Origin: Vampirovibrio chlorellavorus
GTDB taxonomy: Bacteria; Cyanobacteriota; Vampirovibrionia; Vampirovibrionales; Vampirovibrionaceae
DNA length: 64,000 bases
Assembly (NCBI RefSeq): GCF_003149375.1
Contig: NZ_QFWH01000002.1
Location: 1 to 64,000 of the forward strand
Direction: 5' to 3'
Shown piece by piece: positions 50,981 to 60,948 of the stretch (position 1 is its first letter; each line of letters begins with the position of its first letter). The notes below the pieces were generated by a model, which saw only the letters and a list, made by a program, of their open reading frames with translations, ran no database searches and was not told where the DNA came from. A program made the position numbers and the translations under genes.

Positions 50981-52774
50981 ATGCATGAATTTCAGCCTAA
51001 GGATAGTCAGCTTTCGGTGGAAGAAAACCTGGAGACTTTGTTACAATCCACCTCTCACGGTCAGGAACTACTGGCTCATTTGCAAACGGCCTTGCCCAGC
51101 CCACTGGACCTTTTGTTAAAACCCGGTTTGGGCTCCTTGTTGGGTCATGTGACCACGCAACAGGCTTTGCCAGAGGAAGAGGCCGTTTTCAAGCCGGCCA
51201 GGACCATCCTGGGTCAGGAGTGTCGCCTGTCGGAATCTTTGTTGTGGGACATGCAAGAGCAGTTTTACCGGGAGGCGGGCATTAGCGCCTGGGAACAGAA
51301 TGTACCGTTGTTTATTACCAACAGCGCTTATATTGCCGAATCCTACGCTGAAATGGTTCTGGCTTTCGTGGAGGATTACTTTGAGCATCTGGATTTGAGC
51401 GAACCTCTGACCATTATTGAACTGGGTACCGGCACGGGACGATTCAGCCACCACATGCTGAAGGAACTGGAAAGCAAGCTGGCCAGCTTTACCAAGTATC
51501 AGTCCGTCCGAATTCGCTACGTGATGACCGATTTTACCGATAGCAACCCTACTTTCTGGGAGCAGCATGAACGGTTGAGGCCTTTTGTGGATAAAGGCAT
51601 GCTGGATTTTGCCGTTTTCAATCCGCTGGCCAATGATTCCGTGACCCTGCGGATGAGTGGTGAGATGTTAGCCCCCGGTTCTCTGAAAAACCCGGTAATT
51701 GCCATCGCCAACTACTTCTTCGATACTATTAAGCAGGACGTGTTCCGGATTGAATCCAAGGTGCTGAAAGAAGGATTGGTGACTCTGGAGCGCAATCTGG
51801 AAGGGGTCGATCCGGAATCCTCCCCCCAGCTCAGCGAGATTACGCCGGTCTACAACTACAAGGATCTCCGCAGTGATCAGTATTACGATGATGCTCGCCT
51901 GAACGCCATTTTAAAGCACTACCGGCATACTGTTCGTAATGGCAGTATTTTATTTCCCATCGGTGCTTTCCAAGTTATCAAGAACCTGGAAGCCTTGTCT
52001 GATAAGGGTTTGATGGTGATTTCCTCGGACAAGGCCTATACCAGCGTGGAAGAGATGACCCGGTTTTACAGGCATGACTATGCCCGCCACGAGGGTGCCT
52101 TCTCCTACATGGTAAACTACGACGCCATTGGCCAGTACTTTTTGAACCAGGACGGCCATTATTTCCACACAGAAGGCAGCAGTCTCAGTGTCCATACGGT
52201 TTGCTGCCTGAAATTAAACACCCCGGCGCAGAAGTTTGAACACCTGGATTATCTGTATCGTCATAAATTGAACCGGGCCAACACCATTAACAGTGTATGC
52301 GCCGCTATGCCCGGACGGGAAGAATACGGGAGCGCCGCTTATATCCAGCAGCTGTTGTCCCACATTCGTTTGAACCTGTGCGATCCCCGGGTGTTTTTGG
52401 CCATGGGCCAGCAATTGGTGGATGCCCTGCCTCAAGCCTTGCACTCTCAGGTGGCGGATTTGAAGCAGTTGATGGAGCAGACCTGGCAGAATTATTATTT
52501 CTATCCCGGTGAGGTCAACATTCCCTTCTGGTTTTCACAGATCTACTATGGCATGGGCGAGTATGACAAAAGCAACAAGGCGCTGGATGATGCCATCCAC
52601 TATTACGGTCAGCATGAGGCTTTGTACTACCTGAAAGGGCAGAACTATGAGCAGTTACAACAGTGGCATAAAGCCCGGGCTGCCTACGAATGTGCTTTGG
52701 TGATGAAGCCTGATTTTCCGGAAGCCACTGCCGCCCTGAAGCAGGTGGAGGCGAGGCTTAAAGACAAACCATAG
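50981..52774 (+). CDS. MidA-like SAM methyltransferase with C-terminal TPR region
   Basis: A 597-residue protein. The N-terminal region includes a SAM-binding motif (TIIELGTGTGRFSHHMLKEL) and the NDUFAF7/MidA-like layout, with AIANYFFDTIKQDVFRI in place of the usual NE-x-DALP. A long middle region is alpha-helical, and the last 120 residues carry tetratricopeptide-like repeats (FWFSQIYYGMGEYDKSNKAL, ALYYLKGQNYEQLQQWHKA). MidA-type enzymes dimethylate arginine in respiratory complex I; the substrate here is open. ATG 50981 is favoured. It is divergent from the c-di-GMP cyclase gene and overlaps the following convergent gene by 17 bases. Confidence 0.78.
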   Translation: MHEFQPKDSQLSVEENLETLLQSTSHGQELLAHLQTALPSPLDLLLKPGLGSLLGHVTTQQALPEEEAVFKPARTILGQECRLSESLLWDMQEQFYREAGISAWEQNVPLFITNSAYIAESYAEMVLAFVEDYFEHLDLSEPLTIIELGTGTGRFSHHMLKELESKLASFTKYQSVRIRYVMTDFTDSNPTFWEQHERLRPFVDKGMLDFAVFNPLANDSVTLRMSGEMLAPGSLKNPVIAIANYFFDTIKQDVFRIESKVLKEGLVTLERNLEGVDPESSPQLSEITPVYNYKDLRSDQYYDDARLNAILKHYRHTVRNGSILFPIGAFQVIKNLEALSDKGLMVISSDKAYTSVEEMTRFYRHDYARHEGAFSYMVNYDAIGQYFLNQDGHYFHTEGSSLSVHTVCCLKLNTPAQKFEHLDYLYRHKLNRANTINSVCAAMPGREEYGSAAYIQQLLSHIRLNLCDPRVFLAMGQQLVDALPQALHSQVADLKQLMEQTWQNYYFYPGEVNIPFWFSQIYYGMGEYDKSNKALDDAIHYYGQHEALYYLKGQNYEQLQQWHKARAAYECALVMKPDFPEATAALKQVEARLKDKP

Positions 52775-53765
52775 CCACACCCAGCGCGATGAGCAACGTG
52801 GCTAGCCCTGCACCTGCCAGTATAAATGCCAAATCCACAGCGCGCTGTTCGTAATGAATGGTGCGCTTCTGGATTTGATCGTAGACCGTGCGGAAATCGT
52901 CCTGCTTAAACACCCGAAAGTACTGCCCCCCCCCAAGACGGGCGGTTTCCCGCAGGGTGGTTTCATCAAAGTTAACCGGCAGTTGCAGCCCCTGGTAAGT
53001 AATGGTGCCCCCTTCCGGGCTGCCCACCCCAATGGTGTACACGGTGATGTTGGCGGCTCTGGCCTGCCGGGCGGCCAGTTCCGAGGGGAAACCCTCGTGG
53101 CTGTCCCCGTCACTGAGTAGCACAATTACCCGATCCGGGGTCTTTTTGTCCGGGCGCTCTGCGGTTTTTGGGGGTGTCTGCCCGGAGGTATCCGGGGGGC
53201 TCAGCACCTGTAAGGCGGCTTGCAGGGCGCTGCCAATCTCGGTGCGGGGTTTCAGGTCTTTCAGGTTCAGAGCCTTCAGGTAGTTCACCACCTCGGCGTG
53301 CTGGGGAATGGGCGGGGTGACCACGTAGGTGCTTCCGGCAAAAAACTCCAGGCCAACGCGAGCGTCCGAGGGAAGGCTTTCCACGAAGTCAATGGCCGCC
53401 TGTCTGGCCGCTGTGAGGCGATCTGGCTGGATGTCGTTGGCCATCATGCTCAGCGAGATATCCAGTACCAGCATGATATCGGCCGAGTTGACCGGTACCT
53501 GGGTTACGATGGTGGGACGAGACAGGGCCACCATCATCAGGGTCATTATCACGCTGACTGTCCCCGGAAACAGCAGGCGTTTCCACACCGGCGGTGCGGT
53601 TTTAATTTGCTCCACCACGGCGGCGTAACTGAAGTTCAGGGCCTGACGCACCAGTCGCTGACGCAGGCGTTTGAGGTACAGCCACCAGAAGAGGGGGACG
53701 AGCAGCAACAGCAGGAGCATCCAGGGCCATTGCAAATACAGGGTGGAAAGATCGTGCCAGTTCAT
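52758..53765 (-). CDS. VWA-domain membrane protein (BatA-like)
   Basis: A 335-residue protein with two N-terminal hydrophobic segments (WMLLLLLLVPLFWWLY; TVSVIMTLMMVAL), a von Willebrand factor A domain and a C-terminal transmembrane helix. The MIDAS metal site starts with LDISLSM (Asp-x-Ser-x-Ser), followed by LSDGDSHEG. This is the BatA layout of the aerotolerance operon, which acts with MoxR ATPase and DUF58. Its ATG overlaps the DUF58 stop as ATGA, and its end overlaps the convergent methyltransferase gene by 17 bases. Confidence 0.88.
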   Translation of the reverse strand: MNWHDLSTLYLQWPWMLLLLLLVPLFWWLYLKRLRQRLVRQALNFSYAAVVEQIKTAPPVWKRLLFPGTVSVIMTLMMVALSRPTIVTQVPVNSADIMLVLDISLSMMANDIQPDRLTAARQAAIDFVESLPSDARVGLEFFAGSTYVVTPPIPQHAEVVNYLKALNLKDLKPRTEIGSALQAALQVLSPPDTSGQTPPKTAERPDKKTPDRVIVLLSDGDSHEGFPSELAARQARAANITVYTIGVGSPEGGTITYQGLQLPVNFDETTLRETARLGGGQYFRVFKQDDFRTVYDQIQKRTIHYEQRAVDLAFILAGAGLATLLIALGVAMVCL

Positions 53766-54769
53766 CGGGGCCACCACCGGCTTTCACCGTTCAACAGGCT
53801 CAGCAGGGCATCCAGCGGGGGATGGTGGGTGGAAACAAGCGTGGCCGCCCCCAGCGTCTTGAGTTGTTGCAGGCGACTTTCCTGATAACTGGCTGCTTGC
53901 CTGATATAGGCTTGCAGACAGGCGGAATTTTGAGTGTCCACCTCAAGCGGGGCAGCACTTTCCGGATCGATCAGGCACAGTGTTCCCATTGCAGGCGGCA
54001 AGGCCGTCTCCAAAGGGTCGCTGAGCATCAGGCAAAGCAGCTTGACCCGCTGGGACAACTCCCCCAAGGCCAAGTGCCAGGGGCCGTCATGGGGCTGTCC
54101 TGCCTTTGGGTTCCATTTATCCAGAAAATCACTGAGGATGACCACCGTGCTGTGGCGGGCCGCTACCCGGTTCAGCTCTTGCCAGGTCCGCTTCAGGGGA
54201 TCGCCCGTGGCGGCGGACTCCTGGGTATCAATATGCGCTGCCCAGTGAAGCAGTTTCTGGGTGAGGTGCCGGGCGTGGCCGGGGCCATTGCCCGGCGGCA
54301 GTATATTGTTGCGGTTGGGCCCTATCAGGCAGGCTCCCAGTTTATGCCCCGCTTTTTGGGCCAGTAAGGCCAGCAATCCAAACAGTTCAATGGCCTGAGA
54401 CAGCTTGGTCTGTTGCTGCCCAAAGCGCATGGAGGGGGTAAAATCCACTACAATCCACAGGGTCAGTTGCTTTTCCTCATGATAATCCCGCACGTGGGGG
54501 GTTAGGGTGCGGGCAAACACGCTCCAGTCCATTTTTCGGATGTCATCGCCTGGGCGGTATTCCCGTAAATCGGCAAAATCCAGCCCGGTTCCCCGCAATA
54601 TGCCTTTCTGGTTACCGGCCATGGCGTATTTTAATTTCTGGCGCAGCAAAACCTCCAGACGGGCCAGCAGCACATCGGCGTTCTCCGGGATTTCGGTTTG
54701 CACAGGCGGCGGTGGCAGGCAGGCCATGGGATCCAGAATGGGATCGAGCCAACGCAGGAAGGCTGCCAT
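53762..54769 (-). CDS. DUF58 domain protein
   Basis: A 335-residue cytoplasmic protein with the DUF58 signature RGTGLDFADLREYRPGDD followed by IRKMDWSVFART. The following region (LWIVVDFTPSMRFG) has a VWA-like strand with Asp-x-x-x-Ser. DUF58 proteins pair with MoxR ATPases and VWA proteins as a chaperone-like module affecting envelope or stress functions. An AGGAG lies nine bases before ATG 54769. It is translationally coupled to the VWA gene. Confidence 0.9.
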   Translation of the reverse strand: MAAFLRWLDPILDPMACLPPPPVQTEIPENADVLLARLEVLLRQKLKYAMAGNQKGILRGTGLDFADLREYRPGDDIRKMDWSVFARTLTPHVRDYHEEKQLTLWIVVDFTPSMRFGQQQTKLSQAIELFGLLALLAQKAGHKLGACLIGPNRNNILPPGNGPGHARHLTQKLLHWAAHIDTQESAATGDPLKRTWQELNRVAARHSTVVILSDFLDKWNPKAGQPHDGPWHLALGELSQRVKLLCLMLSDPLETALPPAMGTLCLIDPESAAPLEVDTQNSACLQAYIRQAASYQESRLQQLKTLGAATLVSTHHPPLDALLSLLNGESRWWPR

Positions 54770-54773
54770 GGCT

Positions 54774-55748
54774 TCAGGCTCCTGTCATAACCGGGGCGGG
54801 AATGTCAGCCTGAATGTTTTTCAGTAGATTGTCCGGGGTCAACCCGCTGGCCAGCCCCTCGTAAGACAAAATAATGCGGTGGCGCAGGCAGTCATGAATG
54901 AGTTTTTCAATATCGCCGGGCGTCACGTACGTGCGACCGTTCATCAGGGCCAGGGCCTTACTGGCGTGGGCCAAGGCCAGAGAGCCCCGTGGGGAGGAGC
55001 CGTACTGGATGCCCTTTTGCTCGGGCCGTCGGGTGGCGTCGATGAGGGCCACAATGTACTGCATGAGTTTGGGGTCCAGATAAACAGTCTGGGCCTGTTG
55101 GCGCACCTCCAAAATGCGGGTCTGATCCAGGATGGCTTCCAGCGAGGGTAAGACTTCGCCGCTCATGCGCTGAATAATGACCAGTTCTTCTTCCGCCGAG
55201 GGGTAGTCGATGATCAGCTTGAACAGGAAGCGATCCAGTTGGGCTTCCGGCAAGGGAAAGGTGCCTTCCGACTCAATGGGATTCTGGGTGGCCATGACCA
55301 TAAAGGGCTCACTCAGCGTAAAGGTCTCTTTGCCGATGGTGACCTGATGCTCCTGCATGGCTTCCAGCAGGGCGCTTTGTACTTTGGCTGGGGCCCGGTT
55401 GATTTCATCGGCCAGTACAAAGTTGGCGAATAGGGGGCCCACTTCCGTGCTGAAAAGCCCGCTGTTGGGGTTGTAGATGCGGGTGCCCACCAGATCCGAT
55501 GGTAATAAGTCCGGGGTGAACTGAATGCGTTTGAACGCCAGATCCATGACCTGGCTGAGGCACTTGAGGGTCAGCGTTTTGGCCAGCCCCGGCGCCCCTT
55601 CCACCAGCACATGGCCTCCGGCGATCACGGCCACCAGCAGGCGCTCCAGCAGATGCTCCTGCCCCACGATGACCTTTTTCAGCTCATAGAGAACCCGCTC
55701 CAGCAGGGCCTGACTCTCTTGCGCTTGGCTCTCACTCAATCGACTCAT
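54774..55748 (-). CDS. MoxR family AAA+ ATPase
   Basis: A 324-residue AAA+ ATPase of the MoxR group. Walker A is EGAPGLAKTLT, followed by RIQFTPDLLPSDL, Walker B region FVLADEINRAPAKVQSALLEAM, sensor-1 MATQNPIESEGTFPLPEAQLDRF and SSPRGSLAL. It is first in the moxR-DUF58-VWA operon. ATG 55748 starts at the predicted transcription start of the promoter at 55755-55784, with no room for a Shine-Dalgarno, so the transcript may be leaderless. Confidence 0.93.
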   Translation of the reverse strand: MSRLSESQAQESQALLERVLYELKKVIVGQEHLLERLLVAVIAGGHVLVEGAPGLAKTLTLKCLSQVMDLAFKRIQFTPDLLPSDLVGTRIYNPNSGLFSTEVGPLFANFVLADEINRAPAKVQSALLEAMQEHQVTIGKETFTLSEPFMVMATQNPIESEGTFPLPEAQLDRFLFKLIIDYPSAEEELVIIQRMSGEVLPSLEAILDQTRILEVRQQAQTVYLDPKLMQYIVALIDATRRPEQKGIQYGSSPRGSLALAHASKALALMNGRTYVTPGDIEKLIHDCLRHRIILSYEGLASGLTPDNLLKNIQADIPAPVMTGA

Positions 55749-55754
55749 ACGCCT

Positions 55755-55784
55755 ATTGTACACCCGCAAGGGTTGGGATGTGAA
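55755..55784 (-). promoter_or_regulatory. Promoter of the moxR operon, possibly leaderless
   Basis: On the minus strand TTCACA (55784-55779) and TACAAT (55760-55755) are 18 bases apart. Transcription would begin about seven bases after the -10, at the ATG (55748). Confidence 0.7.
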
Positions 55785-55811
55785 ACCGGTTTGCGGCACA
55801 TTTCAGACCCC

Positions 55812-56634: not shown

Positions 56635-57771
56635 CTAAATCGCGGGGCTGGCGGCGCCTTGCAGGACCTCTTGCACTTTGGCCAGTACCAGAGACACGGG
56701 CACTTGCAGGCAATCCGAGGTGGCGCAGTTCTCATTGCGTACGTCCCACAGGCAGGGACGGCAGCTTAAGTTTTCCACCGTGACCGCCTGAAAGCGGGCA
56801 TCGTTGGGGGGGAGTAATTTGCGCTCATCGGTGGGCCCAAAGATGGCCACAACCGGTTTTTGATAACCCACGGCCAGGTGCATGGGGGAGGAATCCACAC
56901 CGATCAGCACATCGGCGGCCAGCACCAAAGCTCCCAGTTGCAAAAGGTTTTTGGTTTGCCCGTACAAGCTATGGAATCCGTTCAGCGTGGCAGGCAGGGC
57001 CTGTTGAATCTGATCGATGGTCTCGGCGTCATCTGGCCCCCCGGCCAGATAGACCTGATGCCCCTGCTGGCAGAGCTGGGTGATGCACTCTGCCCACCGG
57101 GCGGGCGGCCAGCCTTTCAGGATGTTCTTTTGTACGCTGATGGCGCTGACCCCGGGGTGGATGAGAATTTTGGAGCCGGGCGGATGGGGTGGGATCACGC
57201 TGGCTGCCCATTGCCGATCGGCCTCGGAAGGGGGCTTGAGATGCGGCAGTACGGGGCGCATGGGTTGGTAGGCGTCTCCCAGAAGATACCGCAAAAAGCT
57301 GCTGGCCAGGGCGAAGTACATATCGGCGGCGTAGCCCTTGCGGGCGTGCCTGGGAGCCAGTGGGGCTTCGGTGGTCAGTAGCGCACGACTGACCGCCCCG
57401 GTTTGAAAGCCTACCCGAACGGGAATGCCACTGGCAAACAGCAAAACGGGAATAAAGGGACTGCTACCGCTGGAGATGACCGCGTCAAAGTCCCCGGTGC
57501 GTAAGCGGTTCCAGAGTTCGGCGAACAGGCTTTGCCGGGATTGTCCTTGCACTTGCAGCGGCACCACGGCATCAATGGTCAGCAGGTCTTTCACCGATTG
57601 ACTGCGCCGTTCCAGAAACAGGGTGCAGTGCGCTTGCGGCAGGGCACGCCGAACGTCCTCAATGACCGGGGCAAACAGAATTTCATCGCCAATGCCCCCA
57701 AAGTTGATGAAGGCGATGCGCTTGATGGCATCGGGTTTGATGGCGTCGGGCCGGAGTCGTTGCTTGCCCAT
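56635..57771 (-). CDS. Glycosyltransferase family 9 (heptosyltransferase-like)
   Basis: A 378-residue GT-B fold glycosyltransferase of the ADP-heptose:LPS heptosyltransferase family. The N-terminus has AFINFGGIGDEILFAPVI, and the C-terminal domain has LIHPGVSAIS, WPPARWAE, GVDSSPMHLAVGYQKPVVA and FGPTDERKLLPP, the nucleotide-sugar pocket. The last 50 residues keep the family Cys cluster (SCRPC...NCATSDC). Its ATG overlaps the stop of the IctB-like gene by one base. With heptose kinase upstream it probably adds heptose or another sugar to LPS core or a surface glycan. Confidence 0.88.
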   Translation of the reverse strand: MGKQRLRPDAIKPDAIKRIAFINFGGIGDEILFAPVIEDVRRALPQAHCTLFLERRSQSVKDLLTIDAVVPLQVQGQSRQSLFAELWNRLRTGDFDAVISSGSSPFIPVLLFASGIPVRVGFQTGAVSRALLTTEAPLAPRHARKGYAADMYFALASSFLRYLLGDAYQPMRPVLPHLKPPSEADRQWAASVIPPHPPGSKILIHPGVSAISVQKNILKGWPPARWAECITQLCQQGHQVYLAGGPDDAETIDQIQQALPATLNGFHSLYGQTKNLLQLGALVLAADVLIGVDSSPMHLAVGYQKPVVAIFGPTDERKLLPPNDARFQAVTVENLSCRPCLWDVRNENCATSDCLQVPVSLVLAKVQEVLQGAASPAI

Positions 57772-59240
57772 TACAGTTTGCCCTTAAAGGCGTTGGGGTG
57801 CTGGGGTTCGGTCAGTTTGGCCAAGGCGGCCACCATGAACCAGAACAGCAAGTTGACCGAGGGGCGGTACCAGATGGTATCGAAGATGCCGTACATAAAG
57901 GAGCCCACAATGCCTGTCAGCAGGGCGCTGACCAAGAGCTTTTCCGCAAGCGATAAGTAGACAGCATCCAGAGCCAGAAAGGCCCGCAATACCAGCACAA
58001 ACAGCAAGGAGAGGAAAATGGCCAGCCCAATAAACCCTTGTTCCACGGCAATTTCCAGAGGGACGCTGTAGGCACCTAAAGCGTTATAACCGGGCACCAT
58101 GTACAGGCCGTATACCAGTTTAAAGGTGCTGTTACCCGGCCCAATGCCCACAATGGGGTTATCTCGCACCATTTGGCTGGCGCTGTTGTAGACGTTCAGC
58201 CGGTAAGAAATACTGCTGTCCTCTCGCATGGCGAAAATGGAAGCTACCCGGGTGCGGATTTTCTCGGAACTCATCACCCCGCCGCCCACGGCCATCACGC
58301 TGACCAGTAACACAATCAGCCAAGTCGGTTTCATCCACTTGAACGCGCGCAGGGTGGGATGATGCCAGATGAGGTGCCCCACACAGGCAAACAGGCAAAT
58401 AAACATGCTGCCCATGGCCAGGAATCCGCCCCGAGAGCCGGTTAAGACCAGGGCAATCAGTATCAAAACCCCGGAGAACAAGCTGAGGAGAGAAATGAGC
58501 CAGGTTTTGGGTTTGGCGAAAATGCCGCAAATTCCGGCTGCGGCGGCAAAGCAGGGCACCAGAAATCCGGCCAGCAAGTTGGGGTTGGAGGGCTTTAAGG
58601 TGCCAAAGATGCGATCCATTTGCAGTTCCGGGTTAATCGTGGGATCGCTCCAGGTGGCCAGCGGCTGAATGTGGTTGAGGTGCTGGTAAAAGCCAATCAG
58701 GGACTCTCCCAGCCCCAGACAGACCAATAAGCCCATAATGGCGGCCAGGGTGCCGCTACCGCTTTGGCTGATGGTCCGAAAGACGATATAGCCCGCTACA
58801 AAGGTCAGCATTTTGGCCAAGCCAATCAGGCTGGTGAAGAAAAACGAGGAAAAGGCCGTGGATAAAGCCGCCGAGCCCAGAAAGCAGACCACCAGCACAT
58901 CCACAATGGTTAGTTGGTTGAGCCAGTTGGGCCGCAGGAGCAGGGCCGCAAGCAGCGTCACCCCGAACAACAGCCAGGTGACCGCCCCAATAATGCCGGT
59001 GCCGCTGAAGGTGAGTAGCACCAGTAAGCCAAAAACCCCCAGCGTCAATAAAAAACGCACGGCGGAACCATACCACATGGCGCTGGCCTGTTGATGGGGC
59101 AGGCGATTGAGGACTTGCGTCGGCCCGTTCAAAATTTTAGAGGCCCGCAACCATTCCGCGATTTGCAAGCCGCTGGTTTCCGCCAATCGAGCCCAGGGGC
59201 CCAGCAGTCGAGAGTTTTCCAGAGCGTCCTTCAGAATCAT
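57771..59240 (-). CDS. IctB-like / O-antigen ligase family membrane protein
   Basis: A 489-residue polytopic protein of the Wzy_C/WaaL superfamily with about 10-12 hydrophobic segments. It matches cyanobacterial IctB motifs I recall: NPNLLAGFLVPCFAAAAG, LTGSRGG, RVASIFAMREDSS, RLNVY, IVGIGPGNSTFKLVYGLY, ALGAYSVPLEIAVEQGFIGL and IFDTIWYRP. IctB was first described as a bicarbonate transporter, but the fold is that of O-antigen ligases/polymerases, and the setting beside heptose genes supports surface-glycan ligation. ATG 59240 follows GGAAG. An N-terminal cytoplasmic tail of about 45 residues precedes the first helix. Confidence 0.85.
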   Translation of the reverse strand: MILKDALENSRLLGPWARLAETSGLQIAEWLRASKILNGPTQVLNRLPHQQASAMWYGSAVRFLLTLGVFGLLVLLTFSGTGIIGAVTWLLFGVTLLAALLLRPNWLNQLTIVDVLVVCFLGSAALSTAFSSFFFTSLIGLAKMLTFVAGYIVFRTISQSGSGTLAAIMGLLVCLGLGESLIGFYQHLNHIQPLATWSDPTINPELQMDRIFGTLKPSNPNLLAGFLVPCFAAAAGICGIFAKPKTWLISLLSLFSGVLILIALVLTGSRGGFLAMGSMFICLFACVGHLIWHHPTLRAFKWMKPTWLIVLLVSVMAVGGGVMSSEKIRTRVASIFAMREDSSISYRLNVYNSASQMVRDNPIVGIGPGNSTFKLVYGLYMVPGYNALGAYSVPLEIAVEQGFIGLAIFLSLLFVLVLRAFLALDAVYLSLAEKLLVSALLTGIVGSFMYGIFDTIWYRPSVNLLFWFMVAALAKLTEPQHPNAFKGKL

Positions 59241-59259
59241 GGGGTCTTCCAATACTGCC

Positions 59260-59817
59260 CTAGTGCGCTTTGGCCGGGGCGGACGCCGATTGTTTGGCCG
59301 GTGAAGGGGTGGGTTTAATGTCTACAATGGCCCCGGAAACCCGGTAATCATGCCCTTCCACTTCAATGCCCAGACCGATTTTTACCTTGATGCCCTCGGT
59401 CACATAGCCGTCCGCGCTAAACAGGGCATGATCCTTGAGGGTGATGAGATAGTCGTAGCCGTAGGGATCGGCGGGATCTTCCAATGTTTTCAGGCTGCCA
59501 TTGGGCAACAGATAGGAACTGCGCTTGGGGGTCTGCTTGACGTCCAGAATTTCCACCTGCCCCCGGGGTTGGTTGCGAATGGTGATGGACAGCTTCTTGC
59601 CGGGCTGGAACAGATTGGGTTGCAAGGTTTTCAGGTTACGGATGTAAACCGTGTACTGAATGTCGCCCTCTCCCTGAATGACTTGCCCGGAAGTGCGGTA
59701 CATGCCGGACTGGGTGAGTAGAATGCCGCCCGCCACCAAGAGCCCAAGGGCCAGACCGCCAAAGTCGAAAATATTGATTTTGCCAAATAATCTGCCGGAT
59801 GGGTCGAGCAATGTCAT
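59260..59817 (-). CDS. DUF4330 domain protein
   Basis: A 185-residue protein with one N-terminal transmembrane segment (about residues 17-33) preceded by LLDPSGRLFGKINIFD, the DUF4330 signature, and a beta-rich periplasmic domain (YTVYIRNLKTL, LSITIRNQPRG, VKIGLGIEVEGHDYRV). The Lys/Ala/Pro/Ser tail is disordered. Function of DUF4330 is not known; I recall it from cyanobacteria. It sits between heptose kinase and the IctB-like gene, 19 bases from the latter, so an envelope-glycan role is inferred. Confidence 0.85.
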   Translation of the reverse strand: MTLLDPSGRLFGKINIFDFGGLALGLLVAGGILLTQSGMYRTSGQVIQGEGDIQYTVYIRNLKTLQPNLFQPGKKLSITIRNQPRGQVEILDVKQTPKRSSYLLPNGSLKTLEDPADPYGYDYLITLKDHALFSADGYVTEGIKVKIGLGIEVEGHDYRVSGAIVDIKPTPSPAKQSASAPAKAH

Positions 59818-59880
59818 GAACGTCGTCCTGTGCCTCTCGTGGTTACATTTGCCAGATAAAACTGTCAACGGGGTAAAGAT

Positions 59881-60948
59881 TTAGGCGCTGGCCACAGCTT
59901 GCTGAACCTGCTTGAGCAGGGCGTCATCCACACTTTCCAGGGCGGCCTGTAGTTCCTGCGGGTTGGTGGTGGCTGCCCCAAAGCGTTTCACCACAATACT
60001 GGCCGCTAAATTCCCCAAAATGGAAGCCTCCAGCAAGGTCGCGCCGGCGGTCAGGGCCAGGGTCAGGGTGCCTACCACGGTATCGCCCGCGCCGGTCACA
60101 TCAAACACTTCACTGTGGTTGAACACGGGAATATTGGTGGCCACGGGCTCTGCGCTGCCGTCCTGCCGCTCAAACAGGCTCATCCCCGATTCCCCACGGG
60201 TGATTAGCACGTTTTGTCCGTTGGTCTTGCGGAGTAAATCCTGTCCGGCTTGCAGCACCGCCTGCGGGGTGTCCAGCAGGTAACCCACGTTCTTTTCCGC
60301 CTCTGGCTGGTTGGGGGTGAGAATGGTAGCCCCCTGAAACGCGCTGAGATCCTGTTGGCTGTCTACGGCCATCATCAAGCCGTGTTTTTTGCTGAGTGCC
60401 TGACAGTGGGCAATCACTGCCGGGGTGAAGACCCCCAAGCCGTAATCGGAGAGGAGCAGGGCGTCAAAGGCTGGGGCTAATTGACTCAGGGTGTCCAGCA
60501 CCTGATTTTCAATCCTGGCCGAGATGGGGGCATTGGATTCCCGGTCAATGCGCACAATCTGCTGGGTGACCGAATGGTTGGCAATGCCGGAGATGCGGGT
60601 TTTGGTGCTGGTGGGGCGGTCTTCATCCTGAATCAGCCCGGCGGTGTCGATGCCATCCCGTTGTAAGGCGTCATTGAGGAGTGAGGCGTAGTAATCTTTC
60701 CCGGAAATGCCCACCACGGTGGTGCGCTTGGCCTTCAGTTTGGACACGTTGTGGGCGGCGTTGGCTCCGCCTCCCAGAATAATATCGGCCCGCTCGTGGC
60801 GTAAAATCAGCACGGGGGCTTCCCGGGACAGGCGATGCGTGGTGCCGTAGACCATCTCATCTATGACCATATCGCCTACCACCAGCACACGGCCCTGATT
60901 GAGTCGGGAAATAATTTTGCTCAACGTCTCTTTCATAGGGTTAATCAT
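59881..60948 (-). CDS. PfkB-family sugar kinase, heptose-7-phosphate kinase-like
   Basis: A 355-residue PfkB-family kinase equivalent to the N-terminal domain of HldE (RfaE). The start has LVVGDMVIDEMVYG, then HRLSREAPVLILRHE, the GGGANAAHNVSKL loop, the GISGKDYYASLL segment and the C-terminal DVTGAGDTVVGTLTLAL with the catalytic Asp. HldE domain I phosphorylates heptose-7-phosphate for ADP-heptose synthesis. No cytidylyltransferase domain is attached and none is adjacent, so the next step must come from another locus. It lies 41 bases after the TPR lipoprotein gene. Confidence 0.87.
   Translation of the reverse strand: MINPMKETLSKIISRLNQGRVLVVGDMVIDEMVYGTTHRLSREAPVLILRHERADIILGGGANAAHNVSKLKAKRTTVVGISGKDYYASLLNDALQRDGIDTAGLIQDEDRPTSTKTRISGIANHSVTQQIVRIDRESNAPISARIENQVLDTLSQLAPAFDALLLSDYGLGVFTPAVIAHCQALSKKHGLMMAVDSQQDLSAFQGATILTPNQPEAEKNVGYLLDTPQAVLQAGQDLLRKTNGQNVLITRGESGMSLFERQDGSAEPVATNIPVFNHSEVFDVTGAGDTVVGTLTLALTAGATLLEASILGNLAASIVVKRFGAATTNPQELQAALESVDDALLKQVQQAVASA

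What the first reader, a model, noticed from the sequence alone, without database searches (positions are those of the whole stretch)
56635..60948. IctB-like protein in a heptose/glycan cluster of a non-photosynthetic genome
The protein at 57771-59240 carries motifs I recall from cyanobacterial IctB (IVGIGPGNSTF, RVASIFAMREDSS, GAYSVPLEIAVE, IFDTIWYRP). IctB has been called a bicarbonate transporter, yet here it is flanked by a GT9 heptosyltransferase-like gene, a DUF4330 gene and a heptose kinase, with no carbon-concentration gene in view. This suggests an ancestral role in surface-glycan ligation and the bicarbonate label being misleading.
Basis: partly seen in the sequence, partly recalled or inferred. 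Interest (0 to 1): 0.65.

Follow-up and report, generated by a model that had tools for sequence, protein, structure and literature searches.

The report
Cyanobacterial "bicarbonate" protein resembles glycan enzyme
The protein long labelled IctB, a supposed bicarbonate transporter of photosynthetic cyanobacteria, is shared with their non-photosynthetic cousins, where it sits in an envelope-sugar operon; it looks like a surface-glycan transferase in which one key catalytic histidine has become an invariant tyrosine.

Summary
Window 57771-59240(-) is a genuine IctB orthologue from Vampirovibrio, a non-photosynthetic Cyanobacteriota. It lies in a tight four-gene operon: heptose-kinase-like > DUF4330 > IctB > GT9. 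TIGR00947 hits 183/194 genomes of the phylum, including 105/107 without PsaA/B; nine PsaA-bearing genomes lack it, seven of them Prochlorococcus-like. Two genomes matching diatom spheroid bodies, with broken rbcL and photosystem genes, keep ictB and DUF4330 intact (pairwise dN/dS 0.18, 0.15). DUF4330 directly precedes ictB in every non-photosynthetic locus examined, and also accompanies a Wzy_C ligase in Monoglobus (Clostridia). The predicted fold has one significant PDB match, WaaL O-antigen ligase. Both phosphate-binding Arg are kept, but the acceptor-activating His is Tyr in 112/112 IctB proteins (30/34 other Wzy_C proteins have His). By that residue IctB is not a canonical WaaL ligase. Best reading: an ancestral envelope-glycan GT-C transferase with an altered active site and DUF4330 as partner. 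That IctB is not a bicarbonate transporter, and looks Wzy/WaaL-like, is already published. New here, as far as searched: the phylum-wide operon, the DUF4330 pairing and the His-to-Tyr signature. Substrate and catalysis are undetermined.

The parts
59881..60948 (-). HldA/HldE-N-like heptose-7-phosphate kinase (PfkB family), first gene of the operon
   Evidence: PF00294 130 bits; TIGR02198 313.8 bits, cut-off 345; adjacent in 25 of 29 fetched non-photosynthetic loci
59260..59817 (-). DUF4330 protein, 185 aa from ATG: one N-terminal TM helix (16-37) plus an all-beta domain
   Evidence: PF14221 118.3 bits; start set by alignment A2; model mean pLDDT 74; no confident PDB fold match
57771..59240 (-). 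IctB (TIGR00947, Wzy_C fold), 489 aa, about 12 TM helices in the model
   Evidence: tree; model pLDDT 72, pTM 0.80; only significant PDB fold match is WaaL 7tpg_B
56635..57771 (-). GT9 (ADP-heptosyltransferase-like) glycosyltransferase; 1-nt overlap with ictB
   Evidence: PF01075 99.8 bits; TIGR02195 75.5 bits, cut-off 134.6; junction
58068..58070 (-). codon of IctB Tyr391, at the position of E. coli WaaL His338 (acceptor-activating His)
   Evidence: alignment: Tyr in 112/112 IctB with coverage; His 30, Asp 2, Glu 2 of 34 other Wzy_C
58431..58433 (-). codon of IctB Arg270 (= E. coli WaaL Arg215)
   Evidence: Arg in 111/113 IctB
58200..58202 (-). codon of IctB Arg347 (= E. coli WaaL Arg288)
   Evidence: Arg in 112/112 IctB with coverage
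58644..58646 (-). codon of IctB Asp199 in the modelled TM5-TM6 outer loop; invariant in IctB, candidate substitute acid
   Evidence: Asp in 113/113 IctB, 2/34 others; loop position; catalytic role is inference
57864..57881 (-). codons of IctB Asp454-Thr455-x3-Arg459, IctB-specific outer-face motif DTxxxRP
   Evidence: Asp and Arg in 112/112; Thr 110/112; Arg 0/34 others

Best explanation
IctB is a GT-C-type integral membrane glycosyltransferase of the Wzy_C/WaaL fold, inherited vertically from the common ancestor of Cyanobacteriota before photosynthesis. It works on the outer face of the cytoplasmic membrane, holding the diphosphate of an undecaprenyl-linked sugar with Arg270 and Arg347 and moving the sugar to an envelope acceptor. 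DUF4330 (one TM plus a periplasmic beta domain) is its dedicated partner. In Vampirovibrio and most non-photosynthetic relatives the two are made together with heptose-precursor genes (HldA, in some lineages HldC) and often a GT9, which suggests a heptose-containing glycan or core. The usual acceptor-activating His is an invariant Tyr, so acceptor activation must differ. One candidate is the invariant Asp199 in the TM5-TM6 outer loop, as proposed for the acid of CAZy family GT127. Shown: orthology, operon, co-occurrence, residue pattern, predicted fold. Inferred: lipid-linked donor, glycan product, partner role of DUF4330, catalytic residue.
For: Fold: the only PDB match at E<=0.001 is WaaL 7tpg_B (E 4.7e-6, prob 1.00, TM 0.48/0.56); transporters score E>=0.17. 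Residues: WaaL R215/R288 kept; roles of the Arg pair and His from PMC10920833. All IctB-specific conserved polar residues fall in modelled loops of one membrane face. Operon: DUF4330 directly upstream of ictB in 29/29 fetched non-photosynthetic loci, kinase in 25, GT9 in 15; in 46/46 genomes with both listed, same strand and 74-281 nt between domain matches. HldC between kinase and DUF4330 in L050 and L059. Co-occurrence over 194 genomes: both 182, neither 9, IctB only 1, DUF4330 only 2. Monoglobus: MurJ - Wzy_C ligase - GT4 - DUF4330 - DUF4330. Gut-type genomes tested have IctB as their only Wzy_C protein (3/3). Lipid A gene lpxC in 22 of 25 genomes tested. E. coli waaL likewise sits beside heptose genes.
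Against: No substrate or activity is known. Tyr replaces the ligase His in all IctB. Two IctB proteins also lack the first Arg (L053, L054). The heptose neighbours are not next to ictB in photosynthetic genomes, and f3 genomes lack the adjacent kinase. Kdo transferase is absent outside the class, so any shared product is not ordinary Kdo-heptose core LPS. Prochlorococcus-like genomes keep lpxC but lack IctB. Vampirovibrio has two further Wzy_C proteins, both with HN-type motifs, that could do standard ligation or polymerisation. ictB mutants were first reported as high-CO2-requiring (PMC7861388).
Confidence: 0.68

Rival explanations
1. IctB is a bicarbonate transporter or carbon-concentrating component, as its family name says; the copy in non-photosynthetic relatives serves anaplerotic bicarbonate uptake.
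For: Family title of TIGR00947; original high-CO2-requiring mutant (cited in PMC7861388). One photosynthetic genome, G051, lacks both IctB and a RuBisCO match.
Against: 105/107 PsaA-lacking genomes have IctB, while 9 PsaA-bearing ones lack it; the 7 Prochlorococcus-like ones have RuBisCO and carboxysome shells. Spheroid-body genomes with broken rbcL keep it under purifying selection. WaaL fold, no transporter fold match. The mutant lacking five uptake systems has no residual uptake although ictB is intact (Xu 2008, cited in PMC7861388).
Confidence: 0.04
2. IctB is a true WaaL-type O-antigen ligase using the standard mechanism, Tyr simply standing in for His.
For: WaaL is the only significant fold match, both Arg are conserved, heptose-operon logic resembles E. 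coli rfaD-waaF-waaC-waaL, and it is the sole Wzy_C protein in gut genomes tested.
Against: His to Tyr is absolute in IctB and Tyr is never seen in 34 other Wzy_C proteins. Known variants of this clan use Asp or Glu there (PMC10920833). Vampirovibrio has other Wzy_C proteins with the His.
Confidence: 0.16
3. IctB has lost glycosyltransfer and is a pseudo-enzyme or scaffold that binds undecaprenyl-diphosphate carriers, for example a polymerase/export cofactor working with DUF4330.
For: Loss of the acceptor-activating residue in all members, strict partner protein, persistent Arg pair.
Against: Many other outer-face polar residues are invariant (D199, N219, N221, D454, R459), which suggests a working site. 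GT127 shows that the acid can sit in another loop (PMC10920833).
Confidence: 0.14
4. The heptose-gene neighbourhood is accidental operon packing, and IctB/DUF4330 serves another envelope process such as a protein O-glycan or peptidoglycan-linked polymer.
For: In photosynthetic genomes ictB and DUF4330 are mostly far apart and away from heptose genes; Monoglobus is Gram-positive and its cluster uses GT4 and MurJ.
Against: Kinase-DUF4330-IctB order is kept across deep non-photosynthetic lineages; a heptose adenylyltransferase-like gene lies 3 kb from ictB in photosynthetic G131 (L085).
Confidence: 0.25

Closest known systems
Cyanobacterial IctB / TIGR00947 (slr1515, Synpcc7942_0357)
   Same: Same orthologous clade; same NPNL, invariant Tyr, DTxxxRP signature, single copy per genome
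   Different: Scores 254-344 bits in listed non-photosynthetic lineages against a 366 cut-off met by photosynthetic ones; here ictB sits in a heptose/DUF4330 operon and a non-photosynthetic cell
WaaL O-antigen ligase (CAZy GT121, PDB 7TPG)
   Same: Predicted fold, 12 TM helices, long loop before TM10, two diphosphate-binding Arg, heptose-gene neighbourhood in E. coli
   Different: Ligase His is Tyr; IctB-specific Asp199 and DTxxxRP; sequence too distant for a phmmer hit
CAZy GT127 polymerase (clan GT-C1)
   Same: Per PMC10920833, lacks the acid at the usual position and has an acid in the TM5-TM6 loop; IctB likewise has an invariant Asp in that loop
   Different: No sequence comparison was made here; the parallel is by description only
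Monoglobus (Clostridia) Wzy_C ligase with two DUF4330 genes
   Same: Best non-cyanobacterial match found (TIGR00947 174 bits); operon with DUF4330
   Different: Keeps the His; operon has MurJ and GT4, no heptose genes; Gram-positive host
Cyanobacterial Wzy/WaaL group 1 of Pereira et al. 2015 (PMC4594306)
   Same: That study already placed IctB among Wzy/WaaL-like proteins, noted NPNL, absence from some Prochlorococcus, and non-segregating mutants
   Different: In the passages read it called the domain match unclear; DUF4330, the operon, non-photosynthetic relatives and the His-to-Tyr change did not come up

Membership tests
IctB (TIGR00947) | Score over the curated cut-off 366.4 bits | tested here: not met
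   283.9 bits; listed non-photosynthetic members score 254-344, photosynthetic ones 434-650. The cut-off excludes the whole sister group, so the tree is the better test
IctB (TIGR00947) | Branches with cyanobacterial IctB, apart from other Wzy_C proteins of the same genomes | tested here: met
   99/95 support for the IctB clade; IctB-profile scores 427-670 for full-length members against under 118 for paralogues
IctB (TIGR00947) | Family signature: NPN, Tyr at the His position, DTxxxRP | tested here: met
   Window has all; NPN 113/113, Tyr, Asp, Arg 112/112
IctB (TIGR00947) | Bicarbonate transport | not testable with these tools
   Genome distribution and literature argue against it
WaaL O-antigen ligase (GT121) | WaaL / GT-C fold | tested here: met
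   Foldseek 7tpg_B E 4.7e-6; model of moderate confidence
WaaL O-antigen ligase (GT121) | Two conserved Arg (E. coli R215, R288) | tested here: met
   R270 and R347 of the window protein
WaaL O-antigen ligase (GT121) | Conserved acceptor-activating His (E. coli H338) | tested here: not met
   Tyr391; Tyr in 112/112 IctB
WaaL O-antigen ligase (GT121) | Ligates O-antigen to lipid A-core | not testable with these tools
   Needs mutants or biochemistry
DUF4330 (PF14221) | Score over gathering cut-off | tested here: met
   118.3 bits against 27.6
HldA / HldE-N heptose kinase (TIGR02198) | Score over the equivalog cut-off 345 | tested here: not met
   313.8 bits; best family by far, heptose specificity not proven

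The most novel reading that the evidence does not exclude
IctB plus DUF4330 is an ancient two-protein glycan-assembly machine of the whole phylum Cyanobacteriota, with a His-bearing relative in Clostridia. In the cyanobacterial ancestor the ligase His became Tyr and acceptor activation moved elsewhere (Asp199 is the candidate). The machine builds a still unidentified, near-essential envelope glycan, and the CO2 phenotype of mutants is a side effect of a damaged envelope.
Probability: 0.35. Interest if true: 0.75.

Novelty: new variant of a known kind. Interest (0 to 1): 0.57.

Why it matters
ictB has been put into rice, tobacco, soybean and maize as a carbon transporter, yet its function is still listed as unknown. 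Non-photosynthetic relatives and spheroid-body endosymbionts keep it without photosynthesis, so its core job cannot be carbon concentration. The work gives specific handles: a partner protein with no paper in the library searched (DUF4330), an operon, and single residues to mutate. The question of what IctB does becomes testable in model cyanobacteria.

Tried and rejected
Sequence search of IctB against the PDB found nothing useful by phmmer or by a profile of seven sequences; nor did the Monoglobus ligase. DUF4330 model against the PDB: best matches are elongation-factor beta barrels at TM 0.3 and E>0.005, not meaningful. Plasmid search with window DUF4330: no match; with Monoglobus DUF4330: only itself. 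Viral contigs: nothing. Rejected: motif resemblance by shared fold only (the tree and score gap exclude it); horizontal gain by Vampirovibrio (the tree follows kinship groups); Kdo-dependence (WaaA is absent outside the class). Photosynthetic neighbours of ictB (smpB-like, GUN4-like, a sensor kinase; recognised by eye from the translations, not tested) gave no clear functional hint.
Full report
What is there. The window belongs to a Vampirovibrio genome of 2.79 Mb, 92-93% identical at this protein to V. chlorellavorus. Published work describes V. [quoted passage not shown] The finding's gene, 57771-59240 on the minus strand, encodes 489 aa with all four quoted motifs. NCBIfam gives IctB (TIGR00947) 283.9 bits, far above the next family (54 bits) but below the curated cut-off of 366.4; Pfam gives Wzy_C. 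Around it lie a heptose-kinase-like gene, DUF4330 and a GT9 gene, all on the same strand with 63, 19 and -1 nt between them, so one transcript is likely (inference).

Orthology. In a tree of 45 proteins (IQ-TREE, C20 mixture) all IctB proteins form one group (99/95) apart from other Wzy_C proteins, which include paralogues from the same genomes, E. coli WaaL and a Monoglobus ligase; the photosynthetic IctB form one clade (100/100), sister to non-photosynthetic families f4, f6, f10, f13 and f14 (95/97), with the window's class outside. A larger quick tree agrees on the main groups. An IctB profile gives 427-670 bits to full-length members and under 118 to all other Wzy_C proteins. The tree follows the kinship groups of the genomes, as vertical inheritance would. 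The long branches of E. coli WaaL and some paralogues make their own placement unsure, but not the IctB split.

Distribution. TIGR00947 hits (E<=1e-20) are in 183 of 194 genomes sampled evenly from the phylum, DUF4330 in 184. Both 182, neither 9, IctB only 1, DUF4330 only 2; Fisher p 6e-13, though many absences are one related group, so independent events are few. PsaA/B is in 87 genomes. IctB is in 105 of the 107 without PsaA/B and is missing from nine with it: seven small f29 genomes that behave like Prochlorococcus (published as lacking IctB, PMC9477826) and G051, G185. So IctB and photosynthesis come apart in both directions. Two further genomes, G147 (2,794,318 bp) and G183 (3,020,309 bp), fit the non-photosynthetic spheroid bodies of Epithemia and Rhopalodia by size and by broken rbcL, photosystem and carboxysome genes (PMC5638926). 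Their ictB and DUF4330 are intact with every key residue, and the pairwise dN/dS is 0.18 and 0.15, though part of that divergence may predate the loss of photosynthesis. A carbon-concentrating role cannot explain this retention.

Operon. In 29 of 29 fetched non-photosynthetic loci DUF4330 lies directly upstream of ictB; the kinase is adjacent in 25 and GT9 downstream in 15. In 46 genomes with both listed the gap between domain matches is 74-281 nt, always on the same strand. In L050 and L059 a heptose-1-phosphate adenylyltransferase (TIGR02199, over cut-off) sits between kinase and DUF4330; the window genome has one elsewhere, just under cut-off. In photosynthetic genomes the pair is split apart, except in G058 and G083 where they lie about 3 kb apart on one strand; in G131 an HldC-like gene is 3 kb from ictB. 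In a Monoglobus plasmid record (Clostridia) a MurJ flippase, a Wzy_C ligase, a GT4 and two DUF4330 genes form one row. That ligase is the best IctB match found outside the phylum (TIGR00947, 174 bits) and keeps the ligase His. DUF4330 thus accompanies a Wzy_C enzyme in a second phylum, though from one record only.

Active site. The published O-antigen ligase mechanism uses two Arg on the lipid diphosphate and a His to activate the acceptor; polymerases of the same clan have Asp or Glu there, except GT127, whose acid lies in the TM5-TM6 loop (PMC10920833). E. coli R215, R288 and H338 (PMC3643930) map to R270, R347 and Y391 of the window protein in 489-aa numbering (add 4 for the 493-aa numbering used). 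Tyr is in 112 of 112 IctB proteins that cover the site; 34 other Wzy_C proteins have His (30), Asp (2) or Glu (2) and never Tyr. The gapless alignment around it (Tyr/His, then Glu at +9, Gly at +11) makes the equivalence safe. Residues nearly absent elsewhere but fixed in IctB include Asp199 (113/113 against 2/34) and Arg459 (112/112 against 0/34). In the model these fall in outer-face loops TM5-6, TM7-8, TM9-10 and TM11-12 (the helix count leaves out the short N-terminal helices). Two proteins (L053, L054) have Thr for R270.

Fold. AlphaFold on seven close sequences gave pLDDT 72 and pTM 0.80. Of the PDB only WaaL 7tpg_B matched below E 0.001. DUF4330 models as one TM helix and a beta domain (pLDDT 74) with no convincing structural relative.

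How it likely works. A lipid-linked sugar is presented at the outer face of the inner membrane; IctB holds its diphosphate with the Arg pair and transfers the sugar to an acceptor, helped by DUF4330. The acceptor may carry heptose in the non-photosynthetic lineages. Because the usual His is gone, catalysis must rely on another group; Asp199 is my candidate by analogy with GT127, an inference only. The alternative that IctB is non-catalytic is open.

What is already known. IctB is not the bicarbonate transporter (Xu 2008, Price 2013, cited in PMC9366323 and PMC7861388), belongs with Wzy/WaaL-like proteins and resists full knockout (PMC4594306), and a polymer role has been suggested (PMC9477826). 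I found no paper on DUF4330, and none of the passages read mention the His-to-Tyr change or the operon. Subscription papers were not searchable, so novelty is provisional.

Limits. No activity data; heptose specificity of kinase and GT9 is below equivalog cut-offs; Kdo transferase is confined to the window's class among genomes tested, so the glycan cannot be standard core LPS phylum-wide; weak TIGR00947 hits such as G053 were not inspected and may not be IctB proper.

Noticed in passing
G051: A one-contig 3.8 Mb genome with photosystems and BMC shell genes has no RuBisCO-large match and no IctB; a masked stretch or a real loss, not resolved.
   Followed up: no
G077, G096, G106 (family f3): Non-photosynthetic relatives carry a divergent RuBisCO-like protein (73-90 bits) without PsaA/B.
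   Followed up: no
G010, G018, G029: Lineages without PsaA/B carry bacterial microcompartment shell proteins, probably not carboxysomes.
   Followed up: no
Kdo transferase (WaaA N-domain) was found in all 7 Vampirovibrionia genomes tested and in none of 18 other Cyanobacteriota genomes.
   Followed up: partly
L053, L054 (family f4): Two IctB proteins have Thr instead of the first conserved Arg (FSTGAYV), a natural active-site variant.
   Followed up: partly
window 52758-55799: vWA-domain-like, DUF58-like and MoxR ATPase genes lie just downstream of the operon; the MoxR gene is conserved beside it in several close relatives.
   Followed up: no
L142:9441-15140: Monoglobus record has two tandem DUF4330 genes after a MurJ, Wzy_C, GT4 set: a possible Gram-positive glycopolymer locus.
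   Followed up: partly
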